From: Verrucomicrobiota bacterium
GTDB lineage: Bacteria > Verrucomicrobiota > Verrucomicrobiia > Verrucomicrobiales > DEV007
Length of the DNA stretch: 64,000 bases
Assembly: GCA_963205275.1 (NCBI GenBank)
Contig: CAUJIH010000045.1
Coordinates: 1 to 64,000 of the forward strand
Direction of reading: 5' to 3'
The notes below the pieces were generated by a model. That model saw only the letters and a list, made by a program, of their open reading frames with translations. It did not search any database and was not told where the DNA came from. How positions within the stretch are numbered: position 1 is the stretch's first letter; every line of letters starts with the position of its first letter. Made by a program: the position numbers and the translations under genes. Shown piece after piece: positions 23,999 through 32,243 of the stretch.

Positions 23999-24099
23999 GG
24001 TGTCACGCTGCCCACTGCTGATGGCAGTATGCGGCTGTCGCCGTTGGAAGGAAAGTGCCCCCGCAGGCATCGCGCCGTCGCCTCTTTCGATAATCCGTG

Positions 24100-24127
24100 T
24101 TGACAGTCAAACTTCCCTAACTATTCT
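24100..24127 (+). promoter_or_regulatory. Candidate promoter of RHS toxin 1
   Basis: TTGACA (24100-24105), a 16-nt spacer and TATTCT (24122-24127). The GTG start at 24137 is only nine bases further, suggesting a leaderless or nearly leaderless message. The same arrangement is kept upstream of the truncated third copy (30862-30889), though that is part of the same duplication. Confidence 0.5.
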
Positions 24128-24136
24128 GCGTTTGCC

Positions 24137-26131
24137 GTGAATCTGGACATCCCAACGACAATCCGATCCCTCCTCCTTGCTGTGGTGGTCGGGATGGCTT
24201 GGACTGCCGCGACTGTGCAGGCGTCGTTTCCGACTCCCTATAACCCGGCCAGCGAAGACTCCAGCCAGTACGCCACCATCGCCCATCCGGGTAAGGTCGT
24301 GGTCACCGGCGAGGCCGATCCGGGCGCGAGCGTCAGCGTCGATGGACGCCCCGCCGCCGCCCGGCAGGGGCGCTACTTCGCCGACGAGATCGCCCTCGAC
24401 AACACCGCCTCGCCCGTCGCTGCCGGGATCGACATCGCCGCCACACTGGGGGCTGCCACCGAGACGCGCTCCGTCGAGGCCTTTGTTCCCGCTGCTCTTT
24501 CGTCTTTGGAATACGACGCAGACGGCAACCTCGCCTTCGATGGCAGAAACGACTATACCTGGGACGCCGAGAACCGTCTCGTCGAGATCAGCACCCGGTC
24601 CGGCCACGAAACCGTCGGAGCAGTGTTCCCCTCCTTCCGACAGCGGATGGACTACGACGACCTCGGTCGTCGCACCCGCTCACGCACCTGGCACAAGATC
24701 GGGGGCACGGAGCACCTCGTCCGCGACGACGCCTTCGTCTACGACGGATGGCGGCTCGCTGCGGTCTTGAGCGGGCATGACGGAGCCCTCCGGCAACGCT
24801 TCGCGTGGGGTCTCGACCTCAGCCATACCGTCGGCGGGGCAGGCAACGCCGGAGGCCTGCTCGTCTTCGAGGACAGCGTGCTCGGCCAGTCGCACTTCCC
24901 GCGCTACGACGGCAAGGGCAATGTCGTCGGCCTGATCGCTGCCAAGGGGGCACCTGCGAAAGCTCCAGCCGGGACTCCGGGCGCTGGGGAAATGTCGGCA
25001 ACTTACGAATACGATCCCTTCGGCAGCGCCCTCGCCGCGACGGGGCATTCCGCCACGCGCAATCCCTTCCGATTCGGCACTGTGCTGCAGGACCCGGTAA
25101 CGCGGTATTCCTACTACGGATACCGCTTCTACGACCCAGCGCACGGGCGGTGGCTGAGCCGCGATCCATTGGCGGAGGCGGGAGGGCTGAATTTGTATGG
25201 CTTCGTCGGCAATGATCCCGTCAATGCGGTGGATGTGCTGGGGATGGTCGATTGGTGGGATGTTTCCTCGTTTCTCGGCGACTTTGCCAAAATCGGGGGA
25301 ACCACGGCTTGGAACGGCGTCAAGACCGTCGGTCGAGGGCTGCTCTTCGGCACCTATGACCTGACCCATGCAGCTCAAGGCTTTTCTGGCGACATAGGGT
25401 ACGAGATTGGGATGCATGGCTTCGATGCTGTCATGAGCCGGTTTTCTCTCGGCGTCTACGACGAAGCCATCTGGTGGCGCGACTCGTTCAATGCCTTGAA
25501 CGATCCTTGCTACCGGCATCTACTGTCGGAGTCGCTGGCGTTGAATCTATATAACAATTCCGAAGAATACGCACAAGTAGCAGCGGATGCCTCGCTGGGA
25601 AACTTAGCCGGAGCAGGGATTATGAGGTTCGGAAATGCGAATCTACGCAACCCATTCCGAAAGAATGTCGCGGAATCCGCACCGGCAGAGGTTACAGTTG
25701 TTCCCGCCGCAGAGAATATAGATCAGCTCTCACCACTGCTTCAGCTGCAGAAAGACTTGTCAATATTGGTGAATCGCCAAGCTGCGGTTGTGGATCGGTG
25801 GCTTGGATCGAGCAGCAACCGTTGGGCACAGCTCTACCGATCAAATCTCAACACCAAACCCAACTTCGCGAAAGGTATCCGAGGGCGATTTTTGGACATC
25901 CGGACTCGATCGATATTTAGAGATATGTTTCGTGAAGTTCCAGGAACCCGGATTGACCGCACAATTCTCGGCTCTGGGAACAGATTGCGGCCTGACTTAT
26001 ATCTCCCAGATGTCGGCGGCAGGAGCGTGATCTTCGATGTGGGTGGATCGACGAAGGTTGTCGGCATCCTTAAGTATCAGGATATGGCGGACGATATTAT
26101 CCCCCTCATCCCAGCTCAATGGGTTCCGTAA
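24137..26131 (+). CDS. Short secreted RHS-repeat polymorphic toxin 1, nuclease-like C-terminal tip
   Basis: 664 residues from GTG. Sec signal (SLLLAVVVGMAWTAATVQA), an Ig-like motif VVTGEADPGASVSVDG, then an RHS core ending in DPVTRYSYYGYRFYDPAHG, LYGFVGNDP and NAVDVLGM (residue 370). After that the sequence is unlike the other copies except for a linker. The tip ends with RPDLYLP (Asp620), IFDVGG (Asp634) and STK (Lys640), a spacing that could fit a PD-(D/E)xK-type nuclease with a displaced lysine; this is inference. Known RHS proteins deliver such tips to rivals. This core is far shorter than a full cocoon. The candidate immunity gene starts 9 nt downstream. The tip is visibly lower in GC than the core. 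Confidence 0.82.
   Translation: MNLDIPTTIRSLLLAVVVGMAWTAATVQASFPTPYNPASEDSSQYATIAHPGKVVVTGEADPGASVSVDGRPAAARQGRYFADEIALDNTASPVAAGIDIAATLGAATETRSVEAFVPAALSSLEYDADGNLAFDGRNDYTWDAENRLVEISTRSGHETVGAVFPSFRQRMDYDDLGRRTRSRTWHKIGGTEHLVRDDAFVYDGWRLAAVLSGHDGALRQRFAWGLDLSHTVGGAGNAGGLLVFEDSVLGQSHFPRYDGKGNVVGLIAAKGAPAKAPAGTPGAGEMSATYEYDPFGSALAATGHSATRNPFRFGTVLQDPVTRYSYYGYRFYDPAHGRWLSRDPLAEAGGLNLYGFVGNDPVNAVDVLGMVDWWDVSSFLGDFAKIGGTTAWNGVKTVGRGLLFGTYDLTHAAQGFSGDIGYEIGMHGFDAVMSRFSLGVYDEAIWWRDSFNALNDPCYRHLLSESLALNLYNNSEEYAQVAADASLGNLAGAGIMRFGNANLRNPFRKNVAESAPAEVTVVPAAENIDQLSPLLQLQKDLSILVNRQAAVVDRWLGSSSNRWAQLYRSNLNTKPNFAKGIRGRFLDIRTRSIFRDMFREVPGTRIDRTILGSGNRLRPDLYLPDVGGRSVIFDVGGSTKVVGILKYQDMADDIIPLIPAQWVP
24263..25246 (+). 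repeat. RHS core repeat, copy 1
   Basis: This 984-bp segment aligns without gaps (constant offset 3232) to 27495-28478 and, over its first part, to copy 3 (offset 6761). Copies are almost identical, while sequences on either side of copies 1 and 2 differ. Confidence 0.9.
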
Positions 26132-26140
26132 TTTGATCCG

Positions 26141-26797
26141 ATGAAAAAATCTGAAGTAACCAAGAGATGGAACGATGTAAGCTTCGTTGCTGATGCGAAA
26201 GCTGCACTAGAGCGAGTTCTTGTCGCTAAGCAAGCAGCGACCGCAGTCGATCTGCGCGGCATCAAGATCGGGCTTGATGGAGTGCCGATTGGCTTCGAGG
26301 TAGCCGATTTCCTAGACGCGACTCTAATCGGTTCGGACGCTTCGTTCGCGCAGTTCTCGTGCTCGTTTGCTCGAGCGAATCTTCAGAATTCGATTTTTGT
26401 CCAAGCCGTTTTCGACACATGCGACTTCAAAAATACCAGGCTGTCGGAATGCGACTTTTCAGAGTCGCGGATTAACAGCCCGACGCTTGACGATGCTATC
26501 TTTAGTTCGTGTAAATTCGTGAATGCGCGAATTAGTGGGCGTGGATTAAACGAATACGGAGGACGGCGGGTGACTTTCAGCGGTTGTGATTTTACCGATG
26601 CTGTAATCCAGAATCTTCAACTTCGAGCTGTAACCTTTGAAGACTGCACTTTTGATCGAGCCGTCTTCAAAAAGTGTTACCTCGCAGGCGTAAAAGTGAA
26701 CGGCACTCCGATCGGGAAAGAGAGTTTTGAAGGCTGTCACGTTCAATCGCTCTCTGTAAACGGTTTCAGTGTGACGGAGGCAGGTGACAATTTTTGA
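26141..26797 (+). CDS. Pentapeptide-repeat protein, candidate immunity protein of RHS toxin 1
   Basis: 218 residues without signal peptide. The middle and C-terminal parts show repeated A/C-(D/N)-L/F-x-x units, for example DATLIGSDASF, FARANLQNSIF, CDFKNTRLSECDF, CKFVNARI, CDFTDAVI, CTFDRAVFKKCYL, which predict a right-handed quadrilateral beta-helix. It starts 9 nt after the RHS1 stop, and the order toxin then partner is that of polymorphic toxin loci. Established precedent: pentapeptide proteins such as McbG and Qnr/MfpA protect by mimicking DNA or shielding gyrase. Inference: it may neutralise a nucleic-acid-acting tip in this way. No Shine-Dalgarno is seen, so it is probably translated by coupling. 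Confidence 0.75.
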   Translation: MKKSEVTKRWNDVSFVADAKAALERVLVAKQAATAVDLRGIKIGLDGVPIGFEVADFLDATLIGSDASFAQFSCSFARANLQNSIFVQAVFDTCDFKNTRLSECDFSESRINSPTLDDAIFSSCKFVNARISGRGLNEYGGRRVTFSGCDFTDAVIQNLQLRAVTFEDCTFDRAVFKKCYLAGVKVNGTPIGKESFEGCHVQSLSVNGFSVTEAGDNF

Positions 26798-26824
26798 CAA
26801 AACATAGCCGCAAGGGTCTATTCT
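26794..26824 (+). promoter_or_regulatory. Weak candidate promoter of RHS toxin 2
   Basis: TTGACA (26794-26799, overlapping the previous stop) and TATTCT (26819-26824) with a long 19-nt spacer; TCTATT two bases earlier would give 17. The RHS2 start is at 26916. Confidence 0.3.
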
Positions 26825-26915
26825 GGAATTTAAAAAGCAGCCAAACTCAACCCTCTATGATGCCCGACCCGACAGGGTTCCGTCTCCACCTTCTCCTTTC
26901 CTCCCCCGACCATCC

Positions 26916-29306
26916 TTGATCAAAGCGCTTCCATCGCTCCTGCTGGCCTTCCTCCTCGCCGCCCCGACCACCCTCTGCGGCCACGACGCGGCGGGCCGCC
27001 TCTCCGGCATGTCCATCGCCGGCTCGGGGTGGACCCATGCCACCGGATACCTCTACGACAGCGCGGGACGCCTCGAGCACGTGGATTTAGGAGACCTGCG
27101 CTCGACCTACTCCTATGTCTCGAACTCGGGCCTTCTCGACACCGTCAGCCAGAAGACCAACGGCGTCACTCTCCACGCCATGCAGCGCAGTTCGGACCAG
27201 CTCGGGCGACTCCAAAGTATCGCCAGTCAAGCGTCGGTGGCTCCTACGATCTCTCACAGCTACGGGTACAACCTCGCTAACCAGCGCACCTCGGCGACGA
27301 GGGAGGACGGACGATCCATCGCCTACGGCTACGATGCCCTCGGGCATCTGAACTCGGCTATCGAGACCCTGTCCGACTCCTCCGTCCGGGCAGGCCGGTC
27401 CTTCGCCTACGGTTACGACGCCCTCGGCAACCGCACGGACGCCGAGTTCGGCGATTCGAACCAGATCGCCTACACCCCGGCCAACGGAGACGCGAGCCAG
27501 TACGCCACCATCGCCCATCCGGGTAAGGTCGTGGTCACCGGCGAGGCCGATCCGGGCGCGAGCGTCAGCGTCGACGGACGCCCCGCCGCCGCCCGGCAGG
27601 GGCGCTACTTCGCTGACGAGATCGCCCTCGACAACACCGCCTCGCCCGTGGCTGCCAGTCTCGACATTGCCGCCACACTGGGCTCCGTCACCGAGACGCG
27701 CTCCGTCGAGGCGTCGGTGCCTTCGGCCCTGTCCTCCCTCGAATACGACGCAGACGGCAATCTCACCTTCGACGGCAGAAACGACTACACCTGGGACGCC
27801 GAGAACCGTCTCGTCGAGATCAGCACCCGATCCGGCCGCGAAACCGTCGGTGCGGTGTTCCCCTCCTTCCACCAGCGGATGGACTACGACGATCTCGGTC
27901 GTCGCACCCGCTCGCGCACCTGGCACAAGATCGGGGGCACGGAGCATCTCGTCCGCGACGACGCTTTCGTCTACGACGGATGGCGGCTCGCTGCGGTCTT
28001 GAGCGGGCATGACGGAGCCCTCCGGCAACGCTTCGCGTGGGGTCTCGACCTCAGCCACACCGTGGGTGGGGCTGGCAACGCCGGAGGACTGCTCGTCTTC
28101 GAGGACACCGTGCTCGGCCAATCGCACTTCCCCCGCTACGACGGCAAGGGCAATGTCGTCGGCCTGATCGCGGCCAAGGGGGCACCTGCGGAAGCTCCAG
28201 TGGGGACGCCGGGGGCCGGGGAAATGTCGGCAACTTACGAATACGATCCCTTCGGCAACGCCCTTGCCGCGACGGGGCATTCTGCCACACGCAATCCCTT
28301 CCGATTCGGCACTGTGCTGCAGGACCCGGTGACGCGGTATTCCTACTATGGATACCGCTTCTACGACCCAGCGCATGGGCGGTGGTTGAGCCGCGATCCA
28401 TTGGCAGAGGCGGGAGGGCTGAATCTGTATGGGTTTGTCGGCAATGATCCGATCAATGCGGTGGATGTGCTGGGGATGGAGCCATTCACTCAATCTGCGG
28501 CCTTCATCAAGACGGAGGCCTACCTTCGGGCAACGAACGATGCCATCCTAGGATGGAACGCCAACCTTTATCTCAGAGTTCTTCCCGGAATCCTCGCAGC
28601 CCCATACGATCTGGGCCAAGCGATCGCTGGAGCGACGGATGTGCTCGGCTACGAGCTGGGGATGGCGGTCGGCAACCCCACCGATTACGTCCAAGGCGTC
28701 CAAGCGGCGGCATTGGCTCAATATCGGGCTTTAGGGTCTGAACTGGAGTGGCAGCGCCAGCTTTGGAGCGATCCCTGCCTTCGCAAGACGCTACTCGACG
28801 GATATTGGGGCGATGTCTGGAGCCTCGATTACGAAAGGATTTCCTATGCATATCAGGAACTTGCGGTTACGACCTCCATTTTCGCGCTTTCTAGACTGGG
28901 GGCCGCAAAGGCACCACTGACACCGAACCCATATGCGGGAGTGCAAGAGGCTTCGGCATATTTGCGGGCTCAAGGTGTCCCAAGAAACGTGAGAAAACAG
29001 GTTCTTGAGTCGTTCGACGTTAGGACAATCGGAGTTCGCCAAGCAGGAGCATCTGAATACGGTCTCCGCTATTTCGACAACGTCGATGCATTTGCCAAAG
29101 GACGCTATCTTTTCGCGACCTTCCCGGCATCACGCGCTTCTCTGGCTTTGGATCCCCAGTGGAACAGAATGACCTATTTCACCCAGTGGCAGATCCGCCC
29201 AGGGGCTATGTTATTTGAAGGAGTAGCTTCGCCGAAGGGAGTTGGATTGCCAGGAGGGCAAATACAAAAATTCGTACCGAACCTTAACGACCTTTTGTCC
29301 CCATGA
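26916..29306 (+). CDS. Secreted RHS/YD-repeat polymorphic toxin 2
   Basis: 796 residues from a TTG start that directly precedes a Sec signal (MIKALPSLLLAFLLAAPTTL). Unlike copy 1 it has an extra N-terminal run of YD repeats (GYLYDSAGRLEHV, YGYDALGHLNS, YGYDALGNRTDAE) up to residue 190. The shared core spans 194-521 and ends NAVDVLGM. The tip (522-796) starts with a linker similar to RHS1 (PYDLGQAIAG, GYELGMAV, SDPCLRKTL). It ends in a domain with YGLRYFDNVDAFAKGRYL, WNRMTYFTQWQIRPG and GLPGGQIQKFVPN. I have seen this type of ending in other RHS proteins but cannot name a reaction; an ADP-ribosyltransferase-like fold is only a guess. Partner gene overlaps by 4 nt. Confidence 0.83.
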   Translation: MIKALPSLLLAFLLAAPTTLCGHDAAGRLSGMSIAGSGWTHATGYLYDSAGRLEHVDLGDLRSTYSYVSNSGLLDTVSQKTNGVTLHAMQRSSDQLGRLQSIASQASVAPTISHSYGYNLANQRTSATREDGRSIAYGYDALGHLNSAIETLSDSSVRAGRSFAYGYDALGNRTDAEFGDSNQIAYTPANGDASQYATIAHPGKVVVTGEADPGASVSVDGRPAAARQGRYFADEIALDNTASPVAASLDIAATLGSVTETRSVEASVPSALSSLEYDADGNLTFDGRNDYTWDAENRLVEISTRSGRETVGAVFPSFHQRMDYDDLGRRTRSRTWHKIGGTEHLVRDDAFVYDGWRLAAVLSGHDGALRQRFAWGLDLSHTVGGAGNAGGLLVFEDTVLGQSHFPRYDGKGNVVGLIAAKGAPAEAPVGTPGAGEMSATYEYDPFGNALAATGHSATRNPFRFGTVLQDPVTRYSYYGYRFYDPAHGRWLSRDPLAEAGGLNLYGFVGNDPINAVDVLGMEPFTQSAAFIKTEAYLRATNDAILGWNANLYLRVLPGILAAPYDLGQAIAGATDVLGYELGMAVGNPTDYVQGVQAAALAQYRALGSELEWQRQLWSDPCLRKTLLDGYWGDVWSLDYERISYAYQELAVTTSIFALSRLGAAKAPLTPNPYAGVQEASAYLRAQGVPRNVRKQVLESFDVRTIGVRQAGASEYGLRYFDNVDAFAKGRYLFATFPASRASLALDPQWNRMTYFTQWQIRPGAMLFEGVASPKGVGLPGGQIQKFVPNLNDLLSP
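27495..28478 (+). repeat. RHS core repeat, copy 2
   Basis: Gap-free match to 24263-25246. Sequence before it (YD repeats) and after it (toxin tip) differs from copy 1, so the core is the homologous block through which tips could be exchanged. Confidence 0.9.
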
Positions 29307-29587
29307 CCCCGAAACAACAAGCAGTCTTAAAGCGAGCTAATGAGGCAATAGATGGCATCGCCGCGGAATTATCGAAGGCGGATAGTGAACTCGTTGCAAA
29401 TCGGTCGACACTAGAAGCCTTTCGCGTGCAGTTGGTGAAAATTTCTGAGGAAATTGAAAGTGGTAATATGCCACCAATAAACGGGCGGAGAAGTGGCATG
29501 GGGCACGTCATCGTGGATAGCTGGCCGATGGGGTATCCGCTTGGGGAAAAAATAATTACCGCAGAGCAGGCCTATCTAGGCTTCTGA
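29303..29587 (+). CDS. Candidate immunity protein of RHS toxin 2
   Basis: 94 residues. ATG 29303 overlaps the RHS2 stop as ATGA, a translational-coupling arrangement. The first 55 residues are helical and charged (coiled-coil-like, LSKADSELVANRSTLEAF); the end reads GMGHVIVDSWPMGYPLGE. Similar small proteins with a GMGxxIxDSWP-type ending occur next to RHS tips in other genomes as far as I recall, but I cannot name a family. Position, size, lack of signal and coupling support an immunity role; mechanism unknown. Confidence 0.7.
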   Translation: MTPKQQAVLKRANEAIDGIAAELSKADSELVANRSTLEAFRVQLVKISEEIESGNMPPINGRRSGMGHVIVDSWPMGYPLGEKIITAEQAYLGF

Positions 29588-29635
29588 GCTGGCTGCGCAA
29601 TTTCAACTACGATTCCTACGAAAATGATCTGAGCT

Positions 29636-30103
29636 ATGACGAGACTGTTTTTGTTGCTGCTGACACTGCTTTTTTCGCTGGGCGGTTCGGCAATAGGGAT
29701 GAACAGCCGTTTTGGCCATTCCTTCCTTGCCGAAAAGGCACCACCGCGAGTATTGTTAGACAGTAATGTCACTACTGGACTCAAAGCGGATGCAACATTG
29801 GGTGGAAGGATTTTGCCGGGAGAAGTGCCTGTAAAATCATACGTGACGATTCCGGAAATGAGGAATGCGGTCACTCATGGGAATCTTCGAGGTGTTCCGG
29901 GAGCTGCCTACGACCTTCCGACACTCACAACGCAACCGTCACTCAATACCCGAATCAACATTCGGGGGATGTTGCCAGATCGTCCGGGACGGTTCGGGGA
30001 CGGAATTATTGGAGGGCAAGCCCTTGAGAACAACATACCGCTCATCACCGATGATAAGGACCTCAAGACAGCCCTTGAAAAATTAGGAGGGACATCCAGA
30101 TGA
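29636..30103 (+). CDS. Signal-peptide PIN-domain protein, stand-alone toxin tip candidate
   Basis: 155 residues. An N-terminal hydrophobic signal (LFLLLLTLLFSLGGSAIG) is joined to a VapC-like PIN domain. The four acidic positions of PIN RNases can be placed: Asp42 in VLLDSNV, Glu74 in TIPEMRN, Asp122 in RFGDGIIGG and Asp139 or Asp140 in LITDDKDL. PIN domains cut RNA. Cytoplasmic VapC has no signal peptide, so a secreted form fits an effector better than a classical toxin-antitoxin pair. No RHS core precedes it. The next gene overlaps it as ATGA. It could be a displaced tip cassette that gained its own export signal. Confidence 0.7.
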   Translation: MTRLFLLLLTLLFSLGGSAIGMNSRFGHSFLAEKAPPRVLLDSNVTTGLKADATLGGRILPGEVPVKSYVTIPEMRNAVTHGNLRGVPGAAYDLPTLTTQPSLNTRINIRGMLPDRPGRFGDGIIGGQALENNIPLITDDKDLKTALEKLGGTSR

Positions 30104-30645
30104 TTGCGATTGAAAACAAAATCGTGGGAGTAGCCCCAACAGAAATTTTGGGGGCTTCCTTGACGGCCATCGCGGAGCGCAACAAACGTGATCGGCCTGC
30201 AAATTTAGTTTTGAAATTTGAAGGTGGAGAAGTCCACGAAGCAAGTTTCACAAAGATTCGGTTTGATGCTGAATCGAATCAATTGATGCCACTACTGGAA
30301 GTTGGCCAATGGGAAAATATCGTGCTGGTGATGGGGTGGAAGAAATGGTTGATTTTTAGTGTCACCCCAGTAACCCAGATTGGCAGTCTTGATCTTCATC
30401 GTTCAGAAAATGAGGATGCTGGATTTTACCGTGTCAACTTCCTCAGTCAAAACGGTTTATTGATCGCGGTGTATGAAAGTGGAGTTGCTGCCATATCAGG
30501 CGCAGGCAAAGTCGTGTGGCATCGGAAAAAGTATTGGGATGATGTACTGTTGCAGGCGAATGATGGGCGACTGATTTTCCTGACAGAGAGTGGACAGAGA
30601 TTTGCTTTTGAATGTAGCAGCGGAGAGGATACGGAAGCCAATTGA
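30100..30645 (+). CDS. Candidate immunity protein of the PIN toxin
   Basis: 181 residues, no signal peptide, not a family I recognise. It appears as an alpha/beta protein with a beta-rich second half (FYRVNFLSQNGLLIAVYESG, GKVVWHRKKYWDDVLLQ). ATG 30100 overlaps the PIN stop (ATGA), and AGGAGG stands at 30084-30090 with a good spacer, one of the few clear ribosome sites in the window. Tight coupling to a toxic nuclease gene makes a neutralising role likely by context only. The last codons are followed by a 250-nt spacer up to the third RHS copy. Confidence 0.65.
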   Translation: MIAIENKIVGVAPTEILGASLTAIAERNKRDRPANLVLKFEGGEVHEASFTKIRFDAESNQLMPLLEVGQWENIVLVMGWKKWLIFSVTPVTQIGSLDLHRSENEDAGFYRVNFLSQNGLLIAVYESGVAAISGAGKVVWHRKKYWDDVLLQANDGRLIFLTESGQRFAFECSSGEDTEAN

Positions 30646-30761
30646 TACTTTCACCTGCACCGCTGGCGCGCGAAGCGACGGCCACCAAGTCCGGGAGCCA
30701 TCGACCGCTTTGACTTCGGCTTCGCCTTGCCCTTCGGACAGTCTGTCTCCCTTTGGTCGGC

Positions 30762-31470
30762 TGTCACTCTGGCTACTGATGGGGGCAGTATGCGGCTTGC
30801 GCCGTTGGAATAAAAGTGCCCCCACAGGCATCGCGCCATCGCCTCTCTCGACAATCATTCTTGACAGTAAGTTTTCCTTAATTACTCTGCGTTTGCCGTG
30901 AATCTGGACATCTCAACGACAATCCGATCCCTCCTTCTTGCAGTGGTGGCCGGGATGACTTGGACTGCGGCGACTGTGCAGGCGTCGTTTCCGACTCCCT
31001 ACACCCCGGCCAGCGAAGACTCCAGCCAGTACGCCACCATCACCCATCCGGGTAAGGTCGTGGTCACCGGCGAGGCCGATCCCGGCGCGAGTGTCAGCGT
31101 CGATGGACGCCCCGCCGCCGCCCGGCAGGGACGCTACTTCGCCGATGAGATCGCCCTCGACAACACCACCTCGCCCGTGGCTGCCGGGATCGACATCGCC
31201 GCCACACTGGGGGCTGCCACCGAGACGCGCTCCGTCGAGGCGTCGGTGCCTTCGGCCCCGTCCTCCCTAGAATACGACGCCGACGGCAACCTCGCCTTCG
31301 ATGGCAGGAACGACTACACCTGGGACGCCGAGAACCGTCTCGTCGAAATCCAGACGAGAACTGGCCACGAAACGATAGGAGCGGTATTCCCCTCCTTCCG
31401 GCAGCGGATGGACTACGCCGATCTCGGTCGCCGCGTCCGCTCGCGCACTTGGCACCAGATCGGAGGCACG
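30762..31470 (+). repeat. RHS upstream region and core repeat, copy 3 (truncated)
   Basis: Gap-free match (offset 6761) to 24001-24709, covering upstream spacer, promoter boxes, signal peptide and the first part of the core. Similarity stops sharply at about 31470. Confidence 0.88.
30862..30889 (+). promoter_or_regulatory. Promoter-like boxes of the truncated RHS copy
   Basis: TTGACA (30862-30867), 16-nt spacer, TACTCT (30884-30889), GTG at 30898. Duplicate of the boxes at 24100-24127, with one change in the -10. Confidence 0.45.
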
Positions 31471-31545
31471 CAGTTTTTAGGGATAGGCTATTTATTTTTA
31501 GGTCGAACCGTTCAAAGCCGAACCAGTCTAGTTCGGCGGCCATAG
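30898..31545 (+). pseudogene. Truncated RHS protein (copy 3)
   Basis: 215 residues. The first 190 or so match RHS1: signal peptide, Ig-like motif, YDADGNLAFDGRNDYTWDAENR. After HQIGGT at about 31470 the frame runs into 24 unrelated residues and stops, so the core is incomplete and no tip remains. A 7-bp stem hairpin GCCGAAC-N7-GTTCGGC lies at 31517-31537 just at the end. Most likely a broken copy left by recombination. It could still serve as a donor for gene conversion of the intact cores. Confidence 0.85.
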
Positions 31546-31640: not shown

Positions 31641-31947
31641 ATGCTCGAAGTTCGGAAAACGGAGGCGTTCGCCGTGTGGCTGGATGCCCTCTCCGACCTT
31701 CGCGGACGCGCCCGCATCCTTGCGAGGATCGAGCGCCTGCGAGGAGGAAACTTCGGCGACTGGAAGTCCGTCGGGGACGGGATCGGTGAATTGAGAATTG
31801 AGAATCGATATCGGTCCCGGCTACCGGATCTATTATAAGAGAATGGGAACCAAAATCGTTGTTCTGCTGGCAGGCGGCGACAAGAAATCCCAGGATCGGG
31901 ATATCCGGAGGGCGAAAGAAATGGCAAAGCAATTGGAGGATCTTTAA
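31641..31947 (+). pseudogene. higB: RelE/HigB-type toxin (addiction module killer protein), frameshifted by a 7-bp duplication
   Basis: The start MLEVRKTEAFAVWLDAL and the end [28 protein letters not shown] are those of a TIGR02683-type ribosome-dependent mRNA interferase. They lie in two frames. The break is a tandem duplication of TTGAGAA (31791-31797 and 31798-31804); removing one copy restores a 99-residue protein ending at 31947. As it stands, translation stops after 65 residues at about 31838. The stop of the restored frame overlaps the antitoxin ATG. The toxin is therefore off in this sequence, either by decay or reversibly by repeat slippage. Confidence 0.85.
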
Positions 31948-32243
31948 TGAAAACACTAAAAACGACCCGCTTCGACGTCTCCGAGCATCTGCGCACGCCG
32001 GAGGAAATGGCCGCCTACCTCGAAGCCTGTTTTGAGGAGGCGGGGGGCGATGCCGCCTTCATCGCCAAGGCACTCGGTGACATCGCCCGAGCCAAGGGCA
32101 TGAACCAGATCGCCCACGACACCGGTCTCTCCCGCGAGAGCCTCTACAAAGCCCTTTCAGGCGAGCGGGCGCCCAGATTCGACACGATCCTGAAAGTCGT
32201 CCACGCGTTGGGGCTGAAGCTTCATGCGGAGGTGGCCGGGTGA
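31947..32243 (+). CDS. higA: HigA-type antitoxin (addiction module antidote protein)
   Basis: 98 residues with a helix-turn-helix of the XRE/TIGR02684 type: GMNQIAHDTGLSRESLYKALS, followed by FDTILKVVHALGLKL. It binds the toxin and usually represses the operon. ATG 31947 shares one base with the restored toxin stop (TAATG), and GGAGG lies about 7 nt upstream. The antitoxin is intact although its toxin partner is frameshifted, which is the non-lethal way round. Confidence 0.9.
   Translation: MKTLKTTRFDVSEHLRTPEEMAAYLEACFEEAGGDAAFIAKALGDIARAKGMNQIAHDTGLSRESLYKALSGERAPRFDTILKVVHALGLKLHAEVAG

What the first reader, a model, noticed from the sequence alone, without database searches (positions are those of the whole stretch)
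25247..26797. RHS tip paired with a pentapeptide-repeat protein
Seen: a 218-residue pentapeptide-repeat protein starts 9 nt after the RHS1 stop. Known: pentapeptide proteins McbG and Qnr/MfpA act as DNA mimics or gyrase protectors. Inference: immunity by DNA mimicry or target shielding against a nucleic-acid-acting RHS tip, a pairing I do not know to be described.
Basis: partly seen in the sequence, partly recalled or inferred. Interest (0 to 1): 0.8.

Follow-up and report, generated by a model that had tools for sequence, protein, structure and literature searches.

The report
Toxin tip with pentapeptide-repeat immunity partner
Next to a bacterial weapon protein of the RHS kind lies a square-rod 'pentapeptide-repeat' protein that travels with one particular toxin tip and is probably its antidote, a job for which this protein fold seems not to have been described in interbacterial toxin systems.

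Summary
In detail: RHS1 (24137-26131) ends in a variable tip, and a 218-aa pentapeptide-repeat protein (PPR, 26141-26797) starts 9 nt later. The decisive test, conservation of the pair, came out in its favour. In 388 genomes of the phylum the tip occurs in two: this one and Verrucomicrobia MAG UBA6056, from another family. In both it is directly followed by a PPR gene of the same family (31% identical, shared non-repeat N-terminus). In UBA6056 the tip sits on a short secreted protein without RHS and is frameshifted, while the PPR is intact, so the unit is tip+PPR, not RHS+PPR. No other RHS gene in the genus has a PPR behind it (45 with at least 600 nt downstream). One further relative (G023) stands alone, without a tip.

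Best reading: a tip-specific cytoplasmic immunity protein that binds the toxin directly. DNA mimicry or gyrase-style shielding is not supported: the PPR is only mildly acidic, has no strongly acidic face, lacks the C-terminal dimer helix and scores far below Qnr/MfpA cut-offs. That the tip attacks nucleic acids is inference (basic, PD-(D/E)xK-like motif order). PPR immunity for polymorphic toxins was not found in the literature searched.

The parts
24137..26131 (+). RHS1: short RHS protein (664 aa) with an N-terminal hydrophobic signal-like segment, RHS core to residue 370, linker 371-529 and toxin tip 530-664
   Evidence: ORF; RHS_repeat and Rhs_assc_core hits
25247..25723 (+). linker / pretoxin region of RHS1 (residues 371-529), weakly related (31% over 72 aa, E 1e-5) to the same region of RHS2
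   Evidence: BLASTP; no Pfam hit
25724..26128 (+). variable toxin tip (135 aa, pI 10.6, net +8), conserved with UBA6056: NFAKGIRGRFxDxR ... LRPDxxxPDVGGRSxIFDxGGxxKxxxIxKYxxMADxxIPxxP
   Evidence: charge; no Pfam or PHROGs family
26141..26797 (+). pentapeptide-repeat protein, 218 aa, proposed immunity protein; family-specific N-terminus (residues 1-79) with RW...F motif, then the quadrilateral beta-helix
   Evidence: Pfam; AlphaFold2 model pLDDT 74, pTM 0.76; Foldseek to pentapeptide solenoids, QnrB1, AlbG, MfpA; homologs
26916..29306 (+). RHS2, a neighbouring RHS module (92.8% identical DNA over ~1 kb) with an unrelated tip: shows that tips are exchanged at this locus

Best explanation
The two genes are a toxin-immunity cassette carried at the end of a short secreted RHS protein. 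The basic C-terminal tip (about residues 531-664) is the toxin delivered to neighbouring cells. The PPR protein, which has no signal peptide and so stays in the producer's cytoplasm, is its cognate immunity protein and most likely neutralises it by direct binding of the square beta-helix, perhaps with its conserved N-terminal cap, to the tip. The order of motifs in the tip (basic helical part, RPD on one strand, IFDxGG on the next, a lysine-bearing helix, a last hydrophobic strand) resembles a PD-(D/E)xK nuclease with the usual lysine displaced, so cutting of nucleic acid is the favoured activity. Shown: the pair, its conservation with a different carrier, the PPR fold class, lack of association of PPR with RHS in general. 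Inferred: secretion, toxicity, nuclease activity, binding and protection.
For: Tip found in 2 of 388 phylum genomes (the third hit, G114, is a weak, stop-containing match) and PPR N-terminus at E<=0.001 with the single sequence in exactly the same 2; with a profile a third genome appears. If independent, both tip carriers falling among three PPR carriers has a chance of 4e-5, before adjacency counts. In UBA6056 (L011) the PPR start overlaps the tip stop (ATGCGATGAAA), tip 49-52% identical, PPR 31%. There the tip lies on a short protein with an N-terminal hydrophobic segment and no RHS. None of 45 other RHS cores in the genus with >=600 nt downstream (42 with >=1.5 kb) has a PPR behind it, and the other PPR genes of the genus are not next to RHS. 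RHS modules at this locus are ~89-93% identical but carry different tips followed by different small genes, the usual layout of tip and immunity exchange. Tip pI 10.6 against PPR pI 5.3.
Against: Only two tip-PPR pairs are known, and the tip in UBA6056 is split by a frameshift. A third PPR relative (G023) stands alone behind rpsL-rpsG with no tip trace: it may be an orphan immunity gene or show a tip-independent role. The tip model is poor (pLDDT 39), no family or solved structure matches the tip, the canonical ExK lysine is absent, and no complex could be modelled. No experiment exists.
Confidence: 0.68

Rival explanations
1. Target shielding: the PPR binds and protects the toxin's cellular target (for example gyrase/topoisomerase, as McbG, AlbG and Qnr do), not the toxin.
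For: Known PPR self-protection proteins work on gyrase and are poison-specific (PMC7897471); Foldseek neighbours include QnrB1, AlbG and MfpA.
Against: Scores far below the curated cut-offs of Qnr (28.5 vs 240) and MfpA (30 vs 360). The model has no C-terminal dimer helix, the shared feature of the gyrase-acting PPRs (PMC8145042; PMC7897471; model). The tip shows no sign of being a gyrase poison.
Confidence: 0.1
2. DNA mimicry: the PPR rod copies B-DNA and occupies the DNA-binding groove of a nuclease tip.
For: DNA mimicry was proposed for MfpA (PMC8145042); the tip is basic (+8) and the PPR acidic overall.
Against: PPR net charge is only -3 (24 K+R against 27 D+E); no face is strongly acidic in the pentad register. 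It is less acidic than the aligned part of M. smegmatis MfpA (12 vs 15 acidic, both 10 basic in 94 residues). The G-segment mimicry model is itself disputed for QnrB1 (PMC7897471).
Confidence: 0.07
3. The PPR is an accessory of delivery (chaperone or adaptor, as the DUF2169/pentapeptide proteins of some type VI clusters), not an antidote.
For: PPR proteins are known near RHS/VgrG genes as T6SS accessories (PMC3942780).
Against: It tracks the tip, not RHS: absent behind 45 other RHS cores of the genus and present beside a tip without RHS in UBA6056. The modules at the locus have different downstream genes.
Confidence: 0.08
4. Chance neighbours, or a PPR with an unrelated housekeeping role that happened to land behind the tip.
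For: One family member (G023) stands alone.
Against: Adjacency in two distant genomes with only 31-50% identity left, in the same order and strand, with 9 nt and overlapping spacing; the sole PPR gene detected in the genome.
Confidence: 0.04

Closest known systems
Rhs / CDI toxin-immunity pairs (polymorphic toxin systems; Zhang et al. 2012, PMC3482391; Poole et al. 2011, PMC3150448)
   Same: RHS core followed by a variable C-terminal tip and a small gene directly downstream; tips exchanged between near-identical RHS modules.
   Different: The tip matches no Pfam, NCBIfam or PHROGs toxin family, and the partner is a pentapeptide-repeat protein. The 2012 catalogue lists HEAT, ankyrin and LRR repeats as immunity proteins, but the word pentapeptide does not occur in the held text.
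McbG, AlbG, QnrB1, MfpA (gyrase-protecting pentapeptide-repeat proteins)
   Same: Right-handed quadrilateral beta-helix class; encoded by producers as self-protection in the cases of McbG and AlbG.
   Different: They protect a target against small-molecule or peptide poisons, and those of solved structure dimerise by a C-terminal helix. Here the partner is a protein tip and the model has no such helix.
Pentapeptide-repeat accessory proteins of type VI clusters (TagB/TagAB, DUF2169 partners)
   Same: PPR gene near RHS genes.
   Different: Those accompany VgrG/PAAR apparatus. Here the gene follows one tip and is missing from other RHS loci.
Repeat-protein immunity (HEAT with Tox-REase-7, ankyrin with Tox-AHH, LRR; PMC3482391)
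   Same: A solenoid repeat protein serves as antidote of a toxin tip.
   Different: Different repeat and fold.

Membership tests
Rhs polymorphic toxin-immunity pair | RHS-associated core followed by a variable C-terminal domain | tested here: met
   TIGR03696 ends at residue 370; RHS1 and RHS2 share ~93% DNA identity up to there and differ after it
Rhs polymorphic toxin-immunity pair | cognate small gene directly downstream that travels with the tip | tested here: met
   same order in UBA6056 on a different carrier; 2 of 2 tip carriers
Rhs polymorphic toxin-immunity pair | tip toxic and partner protective and binding | not testable with these tools
   needs bench work; no complex could be modelled (tip pLDDT 39)
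PD-(D/E)xK (Tox-REase) toxin | D...(D/E/Q)xK active-site signature | tested here: not met
   RPD is present but the second motif reads FDxGG without the lysine; Zhang 2012 says all ten REase toxin clades have D-[EQ]xK
PD-(D/E)xK (Tox-REase) toxin | fold or profile match | tested here: inconclusive
   no Pfam hit, no PDB sequence match, AlphaFold2 model unusable
Pentapeptide-repeat superfamily | at least eight contiguous repeats, quadrilateral beta-helix | tested here: met
   Pfam 65.9 bits; 14 pentads in one block and 10 in the next; model and Foldseek
Qnr / MfpA gyrase-protecting PPR | curated family score | tested here: not met
   28.5 vs 240 bits (Qnr), 30.1 vs 360 (MfpA)
Qnr / MfpA gyrase-protecting PPR | C-terminal alpha-helix for head-to-head dimer | tested here: not met
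   model shows a helix only at residues 13-28 and no C-terminal helix (the last residues are of low confidence); definition
HalA (Hailong anti-phage effector) | curated family score and partner gene | tested here: not met
   39.8 vs 250 bits; no PADLOC match

The most novel reading that the evidence does not exclude
Pentapeptide-repeat solenoids are a new class of immunity protein for protein toxins delivered between bacteria, directly neutralising a so far undescribed family of toxin tips; orphan copies such as the one in G023 are kept as defence against neighbours.
Probability: 0.5. Interest if true: 0.62.

Novelty: new variant of a known kind. Interest (0 to 1): 0.5.

Why it matters
Pentapeptide-repeat proteins are one of the commonest bacterial folds with few assigned roles, and the best-known ones guard gyrase against small poisons. 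A PPR that neutralises a delivered protein toxin would give many orphan PPR genes a testable role and add a new solenoid to the immunity repertoire (HEAT, ankyrin, LRR). The toxin tip also matches no family in Pfam, NCBIfam or PHROGs.

Tried and rejected
Tip family identification by Pfam, NCBIfam, PHROGs, PADLOC and PDB sequences: nothing. Wider tip or PPR search in plasmids, phages, viral contigs and 84,980 genomes: only UBA6056 for the tip, and generic low-identity phage PPRs. AlphaFold2 of the tip with the two relative pieces: unusable, so no fold search on it. A fused tip-PPR read-through (P0001) was prepared but not modelled, because the tip alone did not fold and only two jobs were allowed. 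The hit in G114 was rejected as a weak, stop-containing match. PPR as general RHS partner: rejected by the survey of 53 RHS cores. PPR as Qnr/MfpA: rejected by score and missing dimer helix. The frameshifted UBA6056 tip was used as two separate pieces and not mended.

Full report
OBSERVATION. RHS1 runs from GTG 24137 to the stop at 26129-26131, and the pentapeptide-repeat (PPR) gene starts at ATG 26141, 9 nt later, and ends at 26797. The RHS-associated core ends at residue 370, so the finding's start marks the beginning of the variable part. The PPR assignment is secure (Pentapeptide_4 E 3.4e-18), and the repeats form two regular blocks of about 14 and 10 pentads.

SETTING. The window belongs to a Verrucomicrobiota assembly of 4.08 Mb (the phylum is inferred from its relative UBA6056). 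The locus is an array of three RHS modules that share ~89-93% identical DNA but differ in what follows: tip + PPR (RHS1), another tip + small ORF (RHS2), a stand-alone signal-peptide protein with a weak PIN-like C-terminus + ORF, and a truncated RHS3. RHS1 and RHS2 begin with hydrophobic signal-like segments and are short (664 and 796 aa); no type VI parts were noticed in the window, whose ORFs I only skimmed. The PPR has no such segment, so it would stay in the cytoplasm (sequence inspection).

CONSERVATION OF THE PAIR. I searched the tip (25724-26128) in 388 genomes of the phylum. It occurs in two: here and in G190, which a later scan named as Verrucomicrobia bacterium UBA6056 (L011). The third hit is spurious. 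The PPR N-terminus, searched on its own, hit at E<=0.001 exactly the same two genomes. In UBA6056 the tip (49-52% identical in two pieces) is directly followed by a 201-aa PPR (31% identical; E 6e-33 in the pairwise comparison), its start codon overlapping the tip's stop. The carrier differs: there is no RHS, only a short protein with an N-terminal hydrophobic segment, and its frame is broken in the middle of the tip while the PPR is intact. The conserved unit is therefore tip+PPR.

HOW EXCLUSIVE. With a two-sequence profile a third PPR relative appeared, G023 (E 5.9e-5; 26% identical over the full length). It lies behind rpsL and rpsG with no tip or tip trace, and the tip profile finds nothing in that genome. 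So 2 of 3 PPR relatives are next to the tip and 2 of 2 tips next to the PPR. Under independence, both tip carriers being among three PPR carriers out of 388 has probability 4e-5, before adjacency is counted. In the genus (34 genomes) 53 other RHS cores were listed. I fetched their downstream DNA; 45 have at least 600 nt and 42 at least 1.5 kb, and none shows a PPR by profile or by repeat score. PPR genes as such are rare there (6 of 34 genomes; in G000 only this one), and the others are not beside RHS. The PPR is thus tied to this tip, not to RHS delivery.

WHAT THE PPR IS. AlphaFold2 with two sequences gives a right-handed square beta-helix (mean pLDDT 74; 80 or more in most blocks from residue 81 to 210), an N-terminal helix at 13-28 and no C-terminal helix. 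Foldseek ranks pentapeptide solenoids, QnrB1, AlbG and MfpA, with low TM-scores, so this is a fold class, not kinship. The gyrase-acting PPRs of known structure dimerise by a C-terminal helix (PMC8145042; PMC7897471), which is not seen here, and the Qnr and MfpA scores are about a tenth of their cut-offs. Net charge is -3, no face is strongly acidic, and the protein is less acidic than MfpA over the aligned part. DNA mimicry is therefore unsupported, though a sequence-based charge count is a crude test.

WHAT THE TIP IS. It is basic (pI 10.6) and has no match in Pfam, PHROGs or PDB sequences. The conserved C-terminal part reads LRPDxxxPDVGGRSxIFDxGGxxKxxxIxKYxxMADxxIPxxP. The order strand with RPD, strand with IFD, helix with lysines, strand recalls PD-(D/E)xK nucleases, but the ExK lysine is absent, whereas all ten described REase toxin clades keep D-[EQ]xK (PMC3482391). 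The model is unusable. I rate nuclease activity at about 0.4, and any nucleic-acid target somewhat higher.

LITERATURE. Seven searches of the held library for pentapeptide repeats with immunity, polymorphic toxin, Rhs, effector-immunity, antitoxin or CdiI found no PPR immunity protein. The 2012 catalogue of polymorphic toxins lists HEAT, ankyrin and LRR repeats as immunity proteins, and 'pentapeptide' does not occur in its held text; its last part and subscription papers could not be checked. PPRs near type VI genes are described as genes of unknown function or accessories.

VERDICT. The pair is real and conserved, and an antidote is the best explanation. Its mechanism is more likely direct binding than mimicry or shielding. 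The evidence is genomic and rests on two pairs and one lone relative, so the claim is moderate.

Noticed in passing
window 24001-31545: Array of three RHS modules with ~89-93% identical DNA, each followed by a different tip or a truncation; the third (30898-31545) is cut short.
   Followed up: partly
window 26916-29306 and 29303-29587: RHS2 has a different tip (GASEYGLRYFDNVDAFAKGRYLF...) with a 94-aa ORF overlapping its stop; neither matches Pfam.
   Followed up: partly
window 29636-30103 and 30100-30645: Stand-alone signal-peptide protein with a weak PIN-like C-terminus (Pfam E 0.055), followed with overlap by a 181-aa ORF: looks like a third toxin-immunity pair without RHS.
   Followed up: partly
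window 31641-32243: Small toxin-antitoxin-like pair; the second gene matches the HI1420-type addiction antidote family (PF21716, E 1.7e-31).
   Followed up: no
L106:9312-9926 (G023): Lone relative of the PPR directly behind rpsL-rpsG, without a toxin tip: possible orphan immunity gene in a highly expressed neighbourhood.
   Followed up: partly
L060 (G677:C37:6800-21000): Five RHS cores in tandem within about 10 kb of another genome of the genus, each with its own short downstream region.
   Followed up: no
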